This document shows positions 18,481 to 64,000 of a stretch of DNA of 64,000 nucleotides, piece by piece. A model generated the notes under the pieces. That model saw only the letters and a program-made list of their open reading frames with translations. It had not been told where the DNA came from and searched no databases. A program made the translations under genes and the position numbers. The stretch lies in assembly GCF_963678975.1 (NCBI RefSeq), contig NC_089274.1, positions 25,085,053-25,149,052 on the forward strand. The letters are read 5' to 3'. How positions within the stretch are numbered: the stretch's first letter is position 1; each line of letters opens with the position of its first letter. Source of the DNA: Dysidea avara (Eukaryota; Porifera; Demospongiae; Dictyoceratida; Dysideidae).

Positions 18481-18518
18481 ACAACTACTTCAGATTGTAG
18501 GCTAAGGGTATACATTCA

Positions 18519-18899
18519 ATGCTAAAAAACATTGTGATATGCAACACCAAGTGCCCATCTATCACCCTCCTAGAATTAACCTGCCCTCTGGACTCCAGTC
18601 AGCATATTCAGGCTGCCCGCGGTAGGAAGCAGAATAAAGTGGAGTATCTCCAATTGTTAGCTGAATTTGACCATCTAAACATCTCTAACTATTATGACAC
18701 AATTGAGATATCTGTCCTAGGCCATTACCAACCATCCACAGTCACGGATCTGCTGAATTTATTAACTTTTGTCCATCCTGTAGTGAAACCATCAAGGTCA
18801 GCCATCAAGAAACTTCTAGATACTGCTGCTTCTGCCAGTATGTTGGCATCCAGGAGAATATTCTTGGCGAAGGACTGTAGGGAGTGGAACCCTAATTAA
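18519..18899 (+). mobile_element. Retroelement C-terminal fragment
   Basis: A 126-residue open frame with the block LLELTCPLDSSQHIQAARGRK, residues 17-37. This resembles the 'ELTVPWE...AxxRKxxKY' block found C-terminal of reverse transcriptase in many invertebrate retroelements, thought to be nuclease-like (family knowledge from memory). Catalytic residues cannot be confirmed by eye. It lies between unit A2 and the LINE that starts near 18,990. It could be a stray piece of a separate element. Confidence 0.45.
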
Positions 18900-18989
18900 G
18901 TAACATCCATATAATTGTATTTTTTTGTATTTTCCCTTTCCATGCCCACATTAGTTTCATTTGTGATCGCATGTTGACCGAGGGCCCAC

Positions 18990-20953
18990 ATGCGTATTTA
19001 TTTGCACATATTTTCATCATTTGTGATGGTTTCTCTCTCTAATAAACATGAAGACTGGGCTGCATATTGTTCAGCAAGAAATGAAGTGAATAATAAACTG
19101 GAGTTAGCACACTCTTCCTACTGTAGAAGAATGTTTGATGATTCTTTTCTGGCAATCGCAGACAGTTTTGGAAGTACATCAAAGCCAAATGCAAAGATTC
19201 ATCAGGAATTTTTCCTTTACTTGTGAATGGTTCCATAGTATCTGATCCACAGGGAAAAGCTGCTGCTTTAAGTGATCAATTCCAGTCTGTATTTACCCTA
19301 GAGGACACATCAAACATACCTAAATTGGATGACAACAGTTTTATTACTCCTATGCCAGAAATTTCTTTTTCAACCAGTGGTATACAAACTTTGTTACATA
19401 ACCTCGACCCAAACAAGGCTCAAGGCCCCGATAAGATTGCCCCCTTTGTGTTAAAGAACTGTGCTGCAGAAATAGCTCCCATATTAGAAATTATTTTTAA
19501 ACAGTCACTAAACTCAGGGTTCTCCCTTCTGACTGGCTTACTGCAAATGTCTGTCCTGTCTTTAAGAAAGGTGACCGTAATACGCCATCTAATTATCGTC
19601 CCATTTCCTTAACATCATGTTGTTGTAAGATAACGGAACATGTAATATTTCACTCTATAATGGATCATGTTCAACATAATAACATTTTAATTGATAATCA
19701 ACATGGATTTAGGTCAGGATTTTCCTGCCAAACACAATTAATCTCACTGGTAGAAGACATATCTCATGCAATGGACAGTGGATTTCAGACAGATGTGATA
19801 CTATTGGATTTTAGTAAAGCTTTTGACACTGTCCCTCACATACGTCTCCTTATTAAGCTCAAAAATTGTACAATTGATAATTTTATTATGACTTGGATCA
19901 AATCCTGGCTTATCCAATGCACACAATCTGTTGTTGTAGATGGTACTAGTTCCTCACTGGTTTCCGTACTATCGGGTGTGCCTCAAGGGACTGTCTTGGG
20001 TCCCTTATTGTTTTTATTATACATTAACGATATTGCAAATAGAGTGTCATCTTCAATTCGTCTGATTACTGATGACTGCATCTTATACAGAGTTATCAAG
20101 TGTGAAAATGATTCTATTATCCTTCAGCGTGATCTTGATCTATTATCTCAGTGGGCAACATTTTGGCAAATGAAGTTCAATGTATCTAAGTGTGTACTAA
20201 TTCGATGCTCTCGATCACTTGATCCACTCAATATGACTACCAACTACATAATCATATTCTAGAAGTAAGAGATGAGCATTTGTATTTGGGTGTCCTGTTA
20301 CACAAATCCCTATCATGGTCTAATCATATTATTATTTAAACTTGTTGCAAAAGCATCACAATTATTCAACTTTTTAAGACGCAACTTGAGTAACTGTTCT
20401 CCCTCAGTTAAAGCCACTGCCTACCTTACTATATTTCATCCTGTTTTAGAGTATGCGGCATCATTATGGGACCCATACCAACAAAATGACATCTTATCCC
20501 TAGAAAAGGTCCAACGTAGAGCTGCTCGGTGGGCACTGTCTGACTATATAATAGACTTAGCAGTGTAACTGATATGCTAGAGATTTTGGATTGGCCGTCA
20601 CTTGAATCTAGACGAAGAATTGGTCGACCACAAACATTTTATAAAGGAATCAACAACTTATCAGGATTATCCATTCCACCATATTTCTTGCCAACTCAAC
20701 GATCCACCAGACACCACCACACTCACCACTTTATCCAACCCAGTACACGGTCCAGTTATTACCAACATTCTTTTTTTCCAAGAACAATCAAAGATTGGAG
20801 CAGCTTGCCAGTATCTGTCATAGAATCAGAAAACGTAGATACATTATCTAATTGTTTGCTGTATATCTTATGTGTATGTGTGATTTCTTTGGGGTGTTGA
20901 TCACCCTCTGGGTGCATCGGCAATTGCCGTCTGCCCAGTAACAATAAATAAAT
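18990..20953 (+). mobile_element. LINE, decayed: reverse transcriptase and 3' end
   Basis: Successive frames give ordered pieces of a non-LTR reverse transcriptase. 19,223-19,612 has the finger region (LDPNKAQGPDKIAPFVLKN). 19,660-20,262 has motif A (VILLDFSKAFDTVPH), motif B (LSGVPQGTVLGPLLFLLYIND) and a broken motif C (ITDDC in place of FADD). 20,272-20,568 and 20,574-20,900 hold the thumb and C-terminal region. At least four frame breaks make it a pseudo-element. It ends in aataaataaattt near 20,953. No endonuclease half is seen, so it is 5' truncated. Confidence 0.9.
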
Positions 20954-22862: not shown

Positions 22863-23735
22863 TTAGTTTGTCTTCAAATTCTCACAATTCATCACATCAT
22901 CTTGACAAAATTCTGATAAATCAAGACCAACAGCAGTTTTAAATGACATTGATATCTTCCCATAATCATTGGTAGGAATACTAGTATTACGTGCCATGAC
23001 AATAGCTCCCTCATAGTTCCAATTCATAGTATTCCCACAGTAATAGGCAGTTACATATGAGCCATCTTCAGCTTTATCCAGCAACCACCAAGTCTCATAG
23101 TGAAGTAATCCAGCATCATAGTATTTGAAAGAAATCTTCTGGCCAGCTGGAGCAACTGGCATTTGAAATTTCTGTGAAATAACAGCATGGCTGCCATTTG
23201 CAAGAGGTACCACATAAGAAGGAGCATATTCCCAGGAGTTGTCATTGATTGCTTGAAAATGGGTATGCTGGCATGGATAACAGTCATAAACTTTATGATA
23301 TCCACGGACTACCCACCAATAGCCATCTAGATCTTTCACAGAAAGCTGCTTCACTGGTTTCACGATTGACGTGCGACATGTGTTTGGTATCAGTGGAAGG
23401 CTTATGCAGTTGTGTTCGGTCACACATCTCATGTACTTGTCAATGGTTTTGTCATATAGAGAGAACTGACATATATTCGCGCAATTCTGCACCTGAAATT
23501 TTTGGGTGGTGTTGTCCTCGTCCCATTGATCTAAACATTTAGCATTGCACGCAATATAGTCTCGGCAAATTTTGTTGCCTTCACATTCCGTCATACTAAC
23601 CAAGCAATGTTCTGTCAGACAGGCCAGGCTAACATTCGCTGAAGCGAAGAGGGAGTCGACAGCGCCTGTTGCAGCAGATGCGTTAGCTATAAATACGAAT
23701 ACAGCGATCCATATGCCGGCGCATTTTAGGCCCAT
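22863..23735 (-). CDS. Secreted violaxanthin de-epoxidase-like protein, paralogue 1
   Basis: Single-exon frame of 290 residues, near the size of the plant VDE Cys-rich plus lipocalin part. Residues 1-21 are a signal peptide (hydrophobic core WIAVFVFIANA, cleavage likely near ASA). The Cys-rich domain (39-120) has C39, C44, C51, C57, C63, C67, C85, C89, C104 and C110; the steps 5, 7, 6, 6, 4 equal those I recall for plant VDE. The lipocalin-like domain (about 130-275) has DLDGYW at 135-140, YDCYPC at 150-155, LHYETWW at 211-217, AYYCG at 230-234 and NYEGAIVMAR at 240-249. These line up with DFNGKW, FDAFDC, LHYQDDW, VYYRG and GYGGAVVYTR of VDE. Catalytic Asp177 is at best Glu214; Trp179 and Tyr198 equivalents remain. 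The C-terminal Glu-rich region of VDE is absent. Four N-glycosylation sequons (N34, N75, N180, N250) suit an extracellular protein. Ligand or substrate is unknown; a carotenoid is only a guess. Confidence 0.9.
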   Translation of the reverse strand: MGLKCAGIWIAVFVFIANASAATGAVDSLFASANVSLACLTEHCLVSMTECEGNKICRDYIACNAKCLDQWDEDNTTQKFQVQNCANICQFSLYDKTIDKYMRCVTEHNCISLPLIPNTCRTSIVKPVKQLSVKDLDGYWWVVRGYHKVYDCYPCQHTHFQAINDNSWEYAPSYVVPLANGSHAVISQKFQMPVAPAGQKISFKYYDAGLLHYETWWLLDKAEDGSYVTAYYCGNTMNWNYEGAIVMARNTSIPTNDYGKISMSFKTAVGLDLSEFCQDDVMNCENLKTN

Positions 23736-23830
23736 AGTTAGCTAATTGTCAGCAAACAAGTCTAAACGCTTAGTTACGCGTAGCTATTTTGGTTCTTTCA
23801 GAGATAAGTGACTGCAGTGTGAACGCATTT

Positions 23831-23840
23831 GTATATATAC
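23831..23840 (-). promoter_or_regulatory. Putative TATA box of VDE-like gene 1
   Basis: The minus-strand sequence gtatatatac lies about 96-105 bp upstream of the ATG. The second paralogue has a TATA-like palindrome at a similar distance, which supports a shared core promoter layout. No experimental start site is known. Confidence 0.45.
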
Positions 23841-24252: not shown

Positions 24253-24594
24253 GGCCACTCCAAATAAATTCTCTGTTTCCCGTCCTGGACTGACTCAGGT
24301 ATATTTGCATGCGGGCGGGCGGTCTTCCATTCAGTATAAAATTCGTAGCTTTTCAAGCCATTATTTACCTGGCACAACCATAAAAAGCTGCATAGCATAA
24401 AATTAATTAAGCTTGTACCTTTCTTTTTATGCTGTAAAAACGCAAACGTGATAACACTGCTGACACGTGAGCTAACATTGTTACAAAGATGGCTTTTACT
24501 GAGCCTTGAAAATAACGGAATAATGGAATATTTAGAGTTGACGGTAGCCAGATGCTGATGGTGGACAGGAACAGGGAATTTATTTGGAGTGGCC
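24253..24594. mobile_element. 'ggccactccaa' TIR element, copy 1
   Basis: Ends ggccactccaaataaattct and gaatttatttggagtggcc are inverted copies. The inner block holds the GC-rich phrase gcatgcgggcgggcggtc. The same family lies upstream of VDE-like gene 2 in the opposite orientation (42,400-42,750). A longer relative is at 49,025-50,130. Confidence 0.75.
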
Positions 24595-35499: not shown

Positions 35500-38400
35500 T
35501 GTTCGGATGAGCCGCTAGTCATACATGTGGAGAGTTATATTCTAGTCATACTCTTAATATTACTACTAATGGTGATATCAACACAAACACTACTAATCAC
35601 TGTAACGTTGACAATTTGATTAGAATTACCCCACTTATTGACTCTAGCTCTCCCAAAACTCAATTAAAATTTACCAATAGTAAACTTCATGTACTTCTCT
35701 GGAATGCACGTAGCCTAAAAAAACAAATCAATGCTTTTCAGTCATTTATTATTCTAATAGTTTTGACATAATTGCAATAACAGAAACATGGCTCACTGAT
35801 CACGTTTACACGAATGAAATATTCCCATCTAGATACACTGTTGTAAGAAGAGATCATGATGGCAGAGGAGGTGGTGTGTTGCTTGCTCTTAAAGACTCGT
35901 TTAACTTGACTCAGCTCCCCTCTCCAAATGAACTTGAAATAATATCTGCTGAAGTTGACTCTAGTTTTATTGTTTGTCTCTTGTATCGTCCGCCAAACTC
36001 CTCGGACCAACACAATTTTTCAATGATATCCTATCTTACTTCATTGGACAGCACCAAGAATTTAATACTACTTGGAGATTTCAACTTACCCGATATTGAC
36101 TGGGATATCTACAGTGGTTCTTCCTCTTTGGCTGATGACCTAGCAGAATTTGCATTCAATCATAATTTAGTACAACACATCAATGGCTCCACACATTCTG
36201 CTGGGAATACTTTAGACATAGTCTTATCCAATATTAACAGTCTGTATCATGCTTATACATACTCAGTTTTACCATCCGGTCTTTCATCAGATCACTACAT
36301 AATAACTCTCCTTATTGATCATTCCTCCAACAGGCCTACAAGGGTTTACAAACAAAAATTTGATTATAACAATGCTTCCTGGGATGACATGAATGAGTTC
36401 TTCACCCAATACGACTTTGTCTTAGCACTAAACTCCAGCAACACCGAATTTATTTGGCTATTCCTTAAGACAGCAATTAACAGTGCGTTAAATCTCTTTG
36501 TACCAAAATTACCTGTTAAAGAATCTAATCAACCCAGATGGTTTAACTCAGCTATTCGTCATAAAATTAAGTGTCTCCGTACCTCCAAAAGACAATTTAC
36601 AAGACACCCTACTACCAGGAAAAGACTCAAAGTAACTAATTTACAAAACGACCTACAACAGATGATAATAGAAGCCAAGGCCAATTATGAGACCAATCTT
36701 GCACTTAGTTATGCTCACACAAACAGTAACAAAATCTTTCAGTATATTTCTAGCATCAAGGGTCGAGAAAACTTTCCAGCCAACATGACTTACAATGATG
36801 ACTGTGTATCCTCAGACTCAGATAAAGCTCAATTGTTCAACAACTACTTTTATTCTATATTCTCCACATCTGATGACGTACCAACAAATGAAACAGATTA
36901 TCAGCCCAGATCTCCCATTGTACAAGACATTGATTTCTCTAATTCTGATGTCCTTGAACTGCTCACAACCTGGATGTCAGTAAAGCATGTGGTATTGACA
37001 GCTTCAGTCAAAAAAATTTTAAGTATTGTGCCCTACCATTACTTCAAGTGATTTGCCATCTTTTTCGTACAAGTTTATCATGCAGCACCATACCCCAGGA
37101 CTGGCGCACCCACTGTGTGATTCTTATATACAAATCTGGAGATAAGACTTCTGTTTCCAACTACAGACCCATTTCACTGTTATGTATTCTCTCCAAGGTA
37201 ATGGAAAGATTAGTGTACAACAATATTATTGATCATGTACAGAAACTCTCCACTAAATGTCTATTTGGTTTTCTTCCCAAAAGATCTACATTACAACAAT
37301 TGTTGGTATTTGCTAAAAACGTTTTAGAGCCTAAATGTGAAGTTGATGTCGTGTATATGGATTTTCGAAAAGCATTCGATACTGTTTCTCACGATCGTCT
37401 TTTACAAAAACTATGGGCTGTTGGAATAACTGGAACAGTTTGGAAGTGGTTCCAAGCGTATCTGAAGCAACGATACCAACGCGTCAAGGTTGGGGACTCG
37501 TTTTCAGATCTATGTAATGTTTTATCAGGAGTTCCTCAGGGAAGTGTCCTTGGACCCTTACTGTTTGTCATTTTCATCAATGATTTACCCGAACATATTC
37601 AATTCGCAATTCCCTTTATCTTTGCAGATGACACTAAGTGTCTATGTAAGATTAGATCTTCTGATGACACTGAGAAATTACAAACAGATATCAACAATGC
37701 CTTTATCTGGAGTATTACATCAGAACTATTTTTTAATTATTCCAAATTCGTTCATCTTCGCTTCTGGGCCAAAGACTCATTAGACCATTCAATTTATAGC
37801 ATTAATGGACAGCCAATCCCTCGTTTATCACACCACAAAGATCTTGGGGTAATATTCACATGTGACTTCAACTGGACAGCCCACTATTCATCTATTTCTG
37901 CAAAAGCTTATAAAATTTTAGGTCTTATCAGGAGAACTTTTAAAACCAATTGTATGGAAGCCAAGAAAAACTTGTACATCTCATTAGTAAGATCCCAACT
38001 AATCTACTGCTCACAAATGTGGAGACCGCAATTAATAAAAGACATAACATCACTAGAACGCATACAGCGAAGAGCAACTAAGTATATTTTAAATGACTAC
38101 ACCTCTACCTATAAATCCAGACTGGAACAACTAAACCTCCTACCACTAATGTACATCTATGAAATAAATGACCTTATGTTCTTAATAAAATCATTGAAAT
38201 CGCCATCAGACAACTTTGAAATTAGAGACCATATTACCTTTACCAGTAACTCTACTAGATCAGGGACACATCACAAGCTAACCCATCCTAGAACAACATC
38301 AGCGGTACAGCGTCACTTTTACTTCAATAGAATCACACGACTTTACAACTACCTCCCAGCTATTAACATTTCATTACCAACTAACATTATCAAATGCCAA

Positions 38401-38684
38401 TTAATCCAACACTTATGGACTCATTTTTACAATAATTTCAATTCTGATCGATCCTGCACTTTTCACCTTCTTTGTCCATGTCATCGTTGCTCCAGTGTGC
38501 CTATATCTGTAAACTTCAATGAACTGTAACTATAATTCTGTAATTAACGGTAACTAAAATTGTTTATTTATTAATTTTTTTTTCACCTTGGATGTCAGCA
38601 CCTGTTGCTGGCATACCTTCAGCATGCAATTTTGATTTTACTTGCACACATGCTGTAAAGCTAAATAAATAAAATAAATAAAGG
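35500..38684 (+). mobile_element. Nearly complete LINE: APE endonuclease plus reverse transcriptase
   Basis: The endonuclease spans about 35,690-36,330: WNARS, then ITETWL, GDFNLPDIDW and SDHY, the expected Asn/Glu/Asp-Asn/Ser-Asp-His residues of APE-type nucleases. The first of these are in another frame because of an indel near 35,750. Reverse transcriptase follows at 36,970-37,900: NYRPISLLC, motif A (YMDFRKAFDTVSHD), motif B (LSGVPQGSVLGPLLFVIFIND), motif C (FADDTK) and the thumb. A single indel near 36,968 separates frames 35,876-37,051 and 37,048-38,529. The frame ends with a cysteine cluster CTFHLLCPCHRC. The 3' end is aaataaataaaataaataaa. Jockey/CR1-like by motif style. With only about two frame breaks it is one of the youngest elements here. 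Confidence 0.92.
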
Positions 38685-41256: not shown

Positions 41257-42105
41257 TCAGTTTTTTCCATTGTTGCAGTTCGTAACTTGGTTGGAGCAAA
41301 AATCTTTTAAGTCAAGGCCGACAGTGCTTTGAAATGATGCCGCTATCTTAGTATATGCACTACTGGGAAGGCTAGTACTACGTGCCATAACCATAGCTCC
41401 CTCGTAGTTCCAGTCCGCAACAGCACCACAGTAGTAGACCAGCACATATGACCCATCATCAGCTTTATCTACGACCCACCATGTAGCATTGTTGGCTGCT
41501 CCTGCAAAGTCGTACGTGAATGTAAAGCCCTTTCCAGGTGGTTCAACAGGCATTTCAATTTTCGCTGAAACAGCTTTATGGGTACCATCAACAAGGGTCA
41601 CAACAAATGATGGAGCAAACTGCCAAGTAGTGTCGCTCATTGATTCGAAATGCTGATGGACGCAGGCGTAGCAATCAAAGACTGGATGATATCCACGAAC
41701 TACCCTCCAATCACCTTGAAGGTCTTTCACAGAAAGTTGCTTTGCTGGTTTTGCACTTGCCGCTCGACATGTGCTTGGTATGGGAGGAAGCTCCATGCAA
41801 TCGTTGCTGGCAGCGCAGGTCATGAATTTGTCGGAATTATCATCAGTATAAGTGAACTGGCACTTACTCGTGCAATTTAGGACATCATATTTCCCCTTGG
41901 TGGTGTCTTCATCCCAATGAGCTATGCACTTAGCACTACATATCAAAAAATCTTGACAATTCTTTTCTTTGCATGCTACCATTTCGCTGTAGCAGTTATC
42001 GTAGAGACAAGGCAGGTTGAAACCTCCTCCTGAAGCAAAAGGTACTGCAGCTGCCGCTGATATCACAGCGGCAAAAGCAATGATCCATGCACAGCTTAGC
42101 CTCAT
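41257..42105 (-). CDS. Secreted violaxanthin de-epoxidase-like protein, paralogue 2
   Basis: Single-exon frame of 282 residues, about half identical by eye to the gene at 22,863-23,735 and on the same strand. Signal peptide 1-20 (AWIIAFAAVISAAAA). Cys-rich domain C33, C38, C45, C50, C56, C60, C78, C82, C97, C103, with the VDE-like spacing. Lipocalin-like domain: DLQGDW at 128-133, FDCYAC at 143-148, NATWW at 206-210, VYYCG at 223-227, NYEGAMVMAR at 233-242. At the position of plant VDE Asp177 this copy has Ala or Thr, so xanthophyll de-epoxidation by the plant mechanism looks unlikely (inference). The Trp and Tyr that line the plant pocket (W209, Y225) are kept. Sequons at N77 and N206 support secretion. 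A lipocalin binding role is possible; nothing here proves it. Confidence 0.9.
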   Translation of the reverse strand: MRLSCAWIIAFAAVISAAAAVPFASGGGFNLPCLYDNCYSEMVACKEKNCQDFLICSAKCIAHWDEDTTKGKYDVLNCTSKCQFTYTDDNSDKFMTCAASNDCMELPPIPSTCRAASAKPAKQLSVKDLQGDWRVVRGYHPVFDCYACVHQHFESMSDTTWQFAPSFVVTLVDGTHKAVSAKIEMPVEPPGKGFTFTYDFAGAANNATWWVVDKADDGSYVLVYYCGAVADWNYEGAMVMARSTSLPSSAYTKIAASFQSTVGLDLKDFCSNQVTNCNNGKN

Positions 42106-42399: not shown

Positions 42400-42750
42400 G
42401 GCTACTCCAAATAAATTCTTTGTTTCCCGTCCACCGCCCGCATCTGGTTACTGCCAGCTCTAAATATTCCATTATTCCGTATTCTTCCATTATTTTCCGG
42501 TTATTCTTGCATACTGATAGGCTCAGTAAAAGCTATCTTGAAACAGTGTCAGCTCACGTGTCAGCAGTGCTATCAAGTCAGCACAAACTTCATGTTAAGG
42601 AAGGAACAAGCTTTATGCATGCTTTTATGCAGCCTTTTTGGCTGTGCCAGGCAGACTGATAATGGCTTGAAAAGCTAGCCAATCTTATAATGAAATAATG
42701 GAAATGGATTGGACCGCCCGCCCGCATGCAAATATATATTTGAAGTGGCC
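42400..42750. mobile_element. 'ggccactccaa' TIR element, copy 2
   Basis: Ends ggctactccaaataaattct and atatttgaagtggcc. The inner sequence (tcagctcacgtgtcagcagtg) is the reverse complement of part of 24,253-24,594, so this copy lies in the opposite orientation. It starts about 295 bp upstream of the second VDE-like start codon. Confidence 0.7.
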
Positions 42751-63096: not shown

Positions 63097-63288
63097 TGTA
63101 ACAAAGTTGTATTATAGTGCCTGTATTTATTTGCACTAGTGTTTTTGTAGTGATGTAACACCAACACCCATGCGCACACATGACTGTGCATACAGACTTT
63201 CATGTAACATGTAGTTAGTAGTGTTGAGTTGAGTTGTATATTTGCTGTATAACTATCCTGTGATTCACATGGTATTAAGAATATCACA
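63097..63288 (+). mobile_element. Probable 5' LTR of Gypsy-type element (start uncertain)
   Basis: Ends in ...atatcaca just before a primer-binding site; a TG start at 63,097 (tgtaacaaag) gives about 192 bp, but TG dinucleotides at 63,071 or 63,081 are possible too. The other LTR is beyond the window, so the left border cannot be fixed. Confidence 0.45.
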
Positions 63289-63289
63289 T

Positions 63290-63301
63290 TGGCGACGAGG
63301 T
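63290..63301 (+). promoter_or_regulatory. tRNA primer-binding site
   Basis: tggcgacgaggt starts with TGG, complementary to a tRNA 3' CCA end, two bases after the presumed LTR end. 'ttggcgacgagg' is a familiar phrase upstream of gag in Gypsy/Mag-lineage elements (from memory). Confidence 0.65.
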
Positions 63302-63305
63302 AAAA

Positions 63306-64000
63306 ATGGCAACACGTGGAGGAATTGGTGAATTCTCAGAAGAAGCGGCAGACTGGGAGGGCTACATAGAGAGACTTGAGAATTATTTTGTAGCACACGA
63401 AATCAGTGATGCTGCCAAGCAGAGGGCAACGTTCATTAGTCAATGTGGCGCTGCCATCTACAAACTGGTTCGAAGTTTCGTGGCGCCACAGAAGCCAAAC
63501 GAAGTGGAATACCCTACTCTAGTCAAGCGGATCAACAAACACTTTGTTCCCAAGCCCTCCGTCATTGTTCAGAGATTCAAGTTCAATACCTGCGTGAGGC
63601 AAGCTGGTGAGTCTGTATCGACATTTGTGGCACACTTGCACGCTCTTTCAGAACATTGTGAATTTGGTGACACATTAGAGGACATGCTTAGAGACCGTCT
63701 CGTCTGCGGTATAGCCAATAGCTGAATGCAGTGTGCCATGCTAGCAGAGCCAAAACTGAAGTTTGCCAGGGCTTTTGAACTCGCTCAAACCATGGAGTCT
63801 GCAGACCGGGACACACGCAAATTACAGTACAACACTTCAGTGCACTTGTTGACAGACAAATCAACAACAACTAAACCTTGTTACCGTTGTGGCGAACGAC
63901 ATCACCCATCATCTTGTCGTTTTGTGGATGCTATCTGTCATGCTTGCAAGAAGACAGGCCGTATCTCTAAGGTGTGTCGAAGTAAACAGAAAACCACAGC
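63306..64000 (+). pseudogene. Gypsy-type gag with an in-frame stop, continues past window
   Basis: 63,306-63,725 encodes 139 residues of a retrotransposon capsid (WEGYIERLENYFVAHEI; YPTLVKRINKHFVPKPS; FKFNTCVRQAGESVSTFVAH). A TGA at 63,723-63,725 interrupts it, probably a CGA-to-TGA change because the same frame then stays open to the window end. After it come zinc knuckles: CYRCGERHHPSSC (about 63,879) and CHACKKTGRISKVC, in which the usual Gly-His is Gly-Arg. The intact family packages RNA in cytoplasmic particles. Pol should follow outside the window. Confidence 0.85.

What the first reader, a model, noticed from the sequence alone, without database searches (positions are those of the whole stretch)
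22863..23735. Violaxanthin de-epoxidase-like secreted protein in an animal-like genome
The frame reproduces the cysteine spacing of plant/algal VDE (39-44-51-57-63-67 and a further C-x3-C pair) and the linear order of its lipocalin motifs, but carries a secretory signal instead of a plastid transit peptide and is surrounded by animal-style repeats. VDE is known for xanthophyll-cycle photoprotection in photosynthetic eukaryotes. An extracellular animal relative could bind or modify dietary or symbiont carotenoids. Origin may be gene transfer from an alga or an ancient, little-noticed family.
Basis: partly seen in the sequence, partly recalled or inferred. Interest (0 to 1): 0.93.

Follow-up and report, generated by a model that had tools for sequence, protein, structure and literature searches.

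The report
Secreted violaxanthin-de-epoxidase-like proteins in an animal
An animal genome carries several intact genes for apparently secreted proteins of the family that plants and algae use to remove oxygen from yellow pigments for sun protection, a family usually tied to photosynthesis, which might here process pigments from food or symbionts.

The parts
22863..23735 (-). VDE-family gene A: single open frame, 290 aa; catalytic-type residues kept (D151, Q156, E214, W216, Y232)
23673..23735 (-). Gene A, about residues 1-21: hydrophobic N-terminal stretch, secretory-signal-like (no dedicated predictor was available)
   Evidence: hydropathy; helix 7-21 in the model at low confidence
23397..23630 (-). 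Gene A, residues 36-113: Cys-rich helical domain with the ten cysteines of plant VDE
22881..23384 (-). Gene A, residues 118-285: lipocalin barrel domain; best solved match is Arabidopsis VDE 3cqn
41257..42105 (-). VDE-family gene B: single open frame, 282 aa, 51% identical to A; positions aligned to D177, Q119, Q153 and F155 are A, V, A and I

Best explanation
Genes A and B are members of an animal clade of the VDE superfamily (PF07137): apparently secreted, disulphide-rich Cys-domain plus lipocalin-barrel proteins encoded in the nuclear genome of a probably non-bilaterian animal. Shown: family identity, intact frames, predicted fold, five copies, animal genome, conservation of the residues equivalent to D114, Q119, W179 and Y198. 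Inferred, for A and its catalytic-type paralogues: the barrel holds one end of a 5,6-epoxy xanthophyll from food or symbionts (fucoxanthin, diadinoxanthin, peridinin and violaxanthin are candidates); an acid (E214, in the place of D177) protonates the epoxide; and Y232/Q156/D151 position ascorbate for reduction, or, without ascorbate, the opened epoxide rearranges as in algal VDL. The plant pH switch (H121, D117) is absent, and C152 and C233, next to the D114 and Y198 equivalents, may form a disulphide that fixes the open geometry, so activity would be constitutive in the extracellular space or endomembrane lumen. Gene B and its near-copy C on the same contig lost the acid and Q119 and are more likely pigment- or lipid-binding proteins without catalysis.
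Confidence: 0.45

Rival explanations
1. The whole animal clade consists of non-enzymatic secreted carriers of carotenoids or other small hydrophobic molecules, like crustacyanin or retinol-binding protein, with the VDE fold kept for binding.
For: Generic animal lipocalins (ApoD, bilin-binding protein, crustacyanin, RBP4) match the model well. Nine of 66 rows lack the acidic residue. Sponges bind carotenoids with secreted carotenoproteins, though the known blue one is of the unrelated ependymin family (PMC10470211, passages).
Against: Plant VDE stands above every other listed match in sequence and structure. The residues docked to ascorbate and needed for catalysis in plant VDE are among the most conserved ones (D114 and Y198 in 66 of 66), which pure binding would not require. 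Loss of Q119 occurs only where the acid is lost (8 of 8 rows without Q119), though this rests on few tree events.
Confidence: 0.33
2. The proteins are enzymes, but act on a different epoxide or lipid (for example an epoxy-fatty acid, a sterol epoxide or a symbiont metabolite) rather than on carotenoids.
For: The positions predicted to stabilise violaxanthin are variable in the clade: F155 in 19 of 66, Q153 in 41 of 66, F123 in 44 of 66.
Against: Gene A itself keeps Q153, F155, F123 and W179. The characterised members of the family named in the review, VDE and VDL, act on carotenoids (PMC13181403, section 10).
Confidence: 0.15
3. The gene belongs to an algal symbiont or food contaminant in the assembly.
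For: Filter feeders carry algae, and the Cys-rich plus lipocalin combination is described for photosynthetic eukaryotes (PMC2483416, passages).
Against: The copies lie in 50.3-Mb and 19.0-Mb contigs. C13 also carries Wnt genes. Both contigs carry COX1 copies inside nuclear sequence; the copy that I read, on C8, uses AGA at conserved Arg positions. Zero matches to the light-harvesting family in 550.8 Mb. The proteins form a clade apart from five plant VDEs on a long branch, and none of 65 relatives carries a name, algal or other.
Confidence: 0.02
4. The family entered an early animal by gene transfer from an alga and then duplicated, rather than being inherited from a pre-plastid eukaryote.
For: All five own copies are single open frames over the VDE domain. 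No relative at E <= 0.001 comes from a UniRef or nr record, so the clade looks patchy, within the limits of a search that needs shared exact words.
Against: No donor could be named: algal VDL/VDR sequences were not retrieved. The branch to plants is very long (4.2 changes per column on either side of an arbitrary root).
Confidence: 0.5

Closest known systems
Violaxanthin de-epoxidase (VDE), Arabidopsis, PF07137, PDB 3cqn/3cqr
   Same: Cys-rich domain with the same ten cysteines; lipocalin barrel; D114, C118, Q119, F123, Q153, F155, W179, Y198 equivalents all in gene A
   Different: No Glu-rich tail; Glu probably in place of D177; in A T, P and E stand at H121, D117 and R138; added Cys at 115 and 199; secretory-type N-terminus instead of a plastid transit peptide; 21-23% identity
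VDE-like proteins (VDL1, VDL2) of stramenopiles and haptophytes
   Same: Glu at 177, Y198 kept, ten cysteines, Glu-rich tail reduced or absent (as described in PMC13181403 section 10)
VDE-related proteins (VDR)
   Same: Glu at 177 and Y198, as described in PMC13181403
   Different: VDR was described in 2008 as lacking the PF07137 signature, with moved cysteines in diatoms (PMC2483416); here PF07137 is far above cut-off and the cysteines are in plant register
Crustacyanin, Sandercyanin and other animal carotenoid- or bilin-binding lipocalins
   Different: Much weaker sequence match (crustacyanin A2 E 0.012 against 3e-16 for VDE), and matches cover only the barrel (about residues 115-290)
VDE gene family listed in the Manila clam genome paper (PMC5499747, one passage)
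   Same: A VDE annotation in an animal genome
   Different: Mentioned in one sentence without sequence, residues or contamination check in the passage seen; its relation to the present clade is unknown

Membership tests
VDE superfamily (PF07137) | Profile match above the curated cut-off over the full model | tested here: met
   112.5 and 108.9 bits against 25.7; positions 3-241 and 3-240 of 242
VDE superfamily (PF07137) | Ten cysteines of the N-terminal domain | tested here: met
   All ten in A and B; 63-66 of 67 animal-type rows per position, the rest being mostly gaps
VDE superfamily (PF07137) | Lipocalin barrel like the solved VDE domain | tested here: met
VDE superfamily (PF07137) | W179, Y198, D114 and Q119 equivalents | tested here: met
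   W216, Y232, D151, Q156 in A; 65, 66, 66 and 58 of 66 rows; B lacks Q119
VDE proper (de-epoxidase of the xanthophyll cycle) | Catalytic Asp177 | tested here: not met
   Glu in A by MAFFT, or a gap at this site by phmmer and hhalign; Ala in B; Asp in 3 of 66 rows
VDE proper | C-terminal Glu-rich domain | tested here: not met
   A and B end directly after the lipocalin domain
VDE proper | pH-switch residues H121 and D117 | tested here: not met
   T and P in A, Q and A in B; D117 in 0 of 66 rows; no His at 121 among the motifs printed for 67 rows
VDE proper | Plastid transit peptide and thylakoid lumen location | tested here: inconclusive
   N-terminus is a short hydrophobic stretch and the genome has no light-harvesting match; no targeting predictor was available
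VDE proper | Ascorbate-dependent de-epoxidation of violaxanthin | not testable with these tools
   Needs an enzyme assay
VDL | Glu at 177 with Y198 kept and no Glu-rich tail | tested here: inconclusive
   Fits gene A by MAFFT register, but the one-residue gap is placed differently by phmmer and hhalign
VDL | Enlarged lipocalin domain | tested here: not met
   Model barrel domain about residues 118-285, against 'considerably larger' in diatom VDL (PMC2483416)
VDL | Groups with VDL in a tree | not tested
   No VDL sequence was retrieved
VDR | No PF07137 signature (as described in 2008, PMC2483416) | tested here: not met
   PF07137 far above cut-off

The most novel reading that the evidence does not exclude
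Animals possess their own clade of secreted VDE-family enzymes that open or remove the 5,6-epoxide of dietary xanthophylls outside any plastid. The Cys-domain/lipocalin fusion then did not need a plastid to be useful and may predate or have left the photosynthetic lineages. These genes would be the missing enzymes behind the modified fucoxanthin-type pigments of filter-feeding animals.
Probability: 0.27. Interest if true: 0.9.

Novelty: new variant of a known kind. Interest (0 to 1): 0.75.

Why it matters
VDE is the enzyme of the light-driven xanthophyll cycle. [quoted passage not shown] A 2026 review describes VDE, VDL and VDR in photosynthetic eukaryotes and calls the origin of the function an open question (PMC13181403, section 8). 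Five intact copies in an animal genome remove the premise of the first argument, and make both the origin of VDE and the enzymology of animal carotenoid conversion directly testable.

Tried and rejected
Algal contamination was considered and rejected on contig size, Wnt genes, COX1 copies and absence of light-harvesting matches. A chance cysteine pattern was rejected on the profile, fold and tree. Relatives in prokaryote genomes and viral contigs were sought with the animal alignment and a plant alignment: pattern matches in each of the four scans, 0 confirmed. Algal VDL/VDR for the tree were not obtained: the plant query gave 921 proteins, of which only the 120 best were listed, the named ones being land plants. 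Rfam (at gathering thresholds) and tRNA scans of the window found nothing. NCBIfam gave no match for A or B at E 0.01. The co-loss of the acid and Q119 looks strong by rows (57/0/1/8, Fisher 1.6e-9) but only 3 independent pairs exist on the tree (2 agree, 1 does not differ; sign test p 0.5), so it is weak evidence. Searches of the genome for 18S (RF01960), cathepsin/silicatein (PF00112), carotenoid oxygenase (PF03055), lycopene cyclase (PF05834) and further copies by protein did not complete.

Rows left out: the tree used 61 of the 65 relatives found (fragments P0052, P0054, P0055, P0186 were dropped; P0001 is the window's own protein), plus 5 own genes and 5 of the 120 listed plant-query proteins. 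Alignment A2 used 52 of the 54 relatives (P0052 and P0055 dropped) plus two window proteins.

Full report
What is there. The minus-strand frame at 22863-23735 is intact, 290 aa, and matches Pfam VDE at 112.5 bits, E 3e-32, over nearly the whole model. A second intact gene of the family lies 17.5 kb away at 41257-42105(-), 282 aa, 51% identical over 260 aligned positions. tblastn of both proteins against the window gives no further significant copy (best other E 0.47). Neither coding region is broken by an intron.

The genome. The window is G000:C3:25085053-25149052 in a 550.8-Mb assembly of 108 contigs; C3 is 50.3 Mb and C13 19.0 Mb long. PF07137 finds five genes, all open over the matched stretch without stops: A, B and C (C3:25004481, 94.7% identical to B) and a tandem pair, E and D, whose matches are about 1.1 kb apart on C13. 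About 6 kb beyond the C13 pair lie minus-strand reading frames, one with a weak WD40 match; they look like exons of a TBL2-type animal gene, from recall only. Wnt, a metazoan family by recall, gives 27 matches on C4, C13 and C15, so one VDE-bearing contig is plainly animal. Chlorophyll a/b-binding proteins: 0 matches, with the cyanobacterial control genome matched. COX1 copies lie on C3 and C13 among other large contigs, so I take them as nuclear copies. The copy on C8 that I read uses AGA where COX1 has conserved arginines and reads as a protein under code 4 apart from stops and a frame change near its start. By recall, that speaks against a bilaterian code and for a sponge, cnidarian or placozoan; cox1 followed by nad1 is demosponge-like, also by recall. 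I call the host a probably non-bilaterian animal, perhaps a sponge. This is inference; the record is unnamed.

Relatives. The database search found 55 proteins, and an alignment search 66, 65 of them not the window's own. None carries a name, and none has a UniRef or nr source; both searches reach only relatives that share exact short words with the query. Some contigs seem to hold several copies (for example four proteins whose longest contig is 7890 long). A tree of 66 animal-type rows and five plant VDEs separates the two groups with full support on a very long branch; because only these two groups were included, this says nothing about algal VDL or VDR. The own genes fall in two supported sub-clades, A/B/C/D and E, each containing database sequences that are none of the five own genes, so the duplication that separates them is older than the split from those other genomes. 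Selection: A-D dN/dS 0.12 at dS 1.4, A-B 0.29. B-C are recent (dS 0.025) with dN/dS about 1.15, too few changes to interpret.

Active site. The roles of residues are taken from PMC13181403 (sections 8, 9 and 10 read). In gene A the counterparts of D114, C118, Q119, F123, Q153, F155, W179 and Y198 are identical. D177 is replaced by E214 in the MAFFT alignments, which the review describes for VDL and VDR. phmmer and hhalign instead leave a gap at D177 and pair E214 with the residue before it. I prefer the MAFFT register, because E214 and W216 lie two apart in one predicted strand (210-221) as D177 and W179 are two apart in plant VDE, and because the column holds Glu or Asp in 57 of 66 rows; it is not settled. 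H121, D117 and R138 are T, P and E in A. Cys replaces residues 115 and 199 in 66 of 66 rows. Since D114 and Y198 are hydrogen-bonded in closed plant VDE, these neighbours could form a disulphide that fixes the site; this pair is inferred, as no coordinates could be measured. All five own proteins have 16 cysteines after residue 30. B and C have Ala at 177 and Val or Thr at 119.

Likely working. Secreted enzyme on epoxy-xanthophylls for A, D and E; non-catalytic binder for B and C. Ascorbate could be made by the animal: ALO-domain genes are on C15 (461-aa frame; TIGR01678 247.8 bits, below its cut-off of 396.8) and C3 (two exon-like pieces), with a partial match on C7. GULO in sponges and cnidarians is reported in PMC4396506 (passages and one section). 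Candidate substrates come from the animal carotenoid literature: bastaxanthins and another acetylenic sponge carotenoid are assumed to derive from algal fucoxanthin, and cleavage of epoxide rings is described for bivalves (PMC3093257, passages). Mytiloxanthin occurs in a blue sponge (PMC10470211, passages).

What is in print. Searches of the held library paired violaxanthin de-epoxidase with sponge, metazoa, Amphimedon, lipocalin/animals/horizontal gene transfer, Acanthamoeba and invertebrate, plus two mixed-term searches. In these I recognised one animal claim: a sentence in the Manila clam genome paper listing VDE among families found only in that clam of four molluscs (PMC5499747). This is a weak test of absence: I judged by titles and abstract starts and opened six papers in all; the listings were cut (20 of 22, 18 of 19, 8 of 1681, 12 of 45); the eight papers listed do not hold the VDE term, so that search tells nothing; and the figure of PMC4396506 that plots VDE and VDE-like genes across eukaryotes could not be seen. 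The 2008 paper (passages) rests its post-plastid fusion hypothesis on the absence of the domain combination outside photosynthetic eukaryotes.

Verdict. A real, intact, multi-copy, animal branch of the VDE superfamily. It is not VDE proper, because D177 and the Glu-rich tail are missing. Function and origin are open.

Noticed in passing
window 35714-38526 (+): Non-LTR retroelement: endonuclease (PF14529) and reverse transcriptase (PF00078) frames, overlapping in different frames.
   Followed up: partly
window 18501-20897 (+) and L017:7372-8388: Broken non-LTR element (reverse transcriptase E 7e-31 at 19501-20259); a close copy of its upstream frames lies near gene C.
   Followed up: partly
window 63279-63998 (+): Gag-like frame with a weak PNMA match (below its cut-off) followed by a cysteine-rich frame without a Pfam match that looks like a zinc knuckle; probably a retrotransposon cut by the window end.
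   Followed up: no
window 24508-24571 and 42424-42487: 83% complementary 64-nt arms, one upstream of gene A and one upstream of gene B, in opposite orientation: probably one dispersed repeat beside both genes.
   Followed up: no
window 23830-23839: TATATATA-like stretch about 100 bp upstream of the gene A start codon, read by eye.
   Followed up: no
G000:C8:25954946-25956247 and the other places (21 matches in all): Many copies and fragments of mitochondrial COX1 in large contigs, one nearly full length and followed by NAD1-like sequence with short hairpin repeats between.
   Followed up: partly
G000:C13:5319186-5351163 and 5498267-5499499: Cluster of Wnt matches on the contig that carries the VDE pair D/E.
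   Followed up: no
relatives P0013, P0015, P0025, P0176: A second sub-clade that lost both the acid (Lys) and Q119 (Ala), as the B/C branch did.
   Followed up: partly
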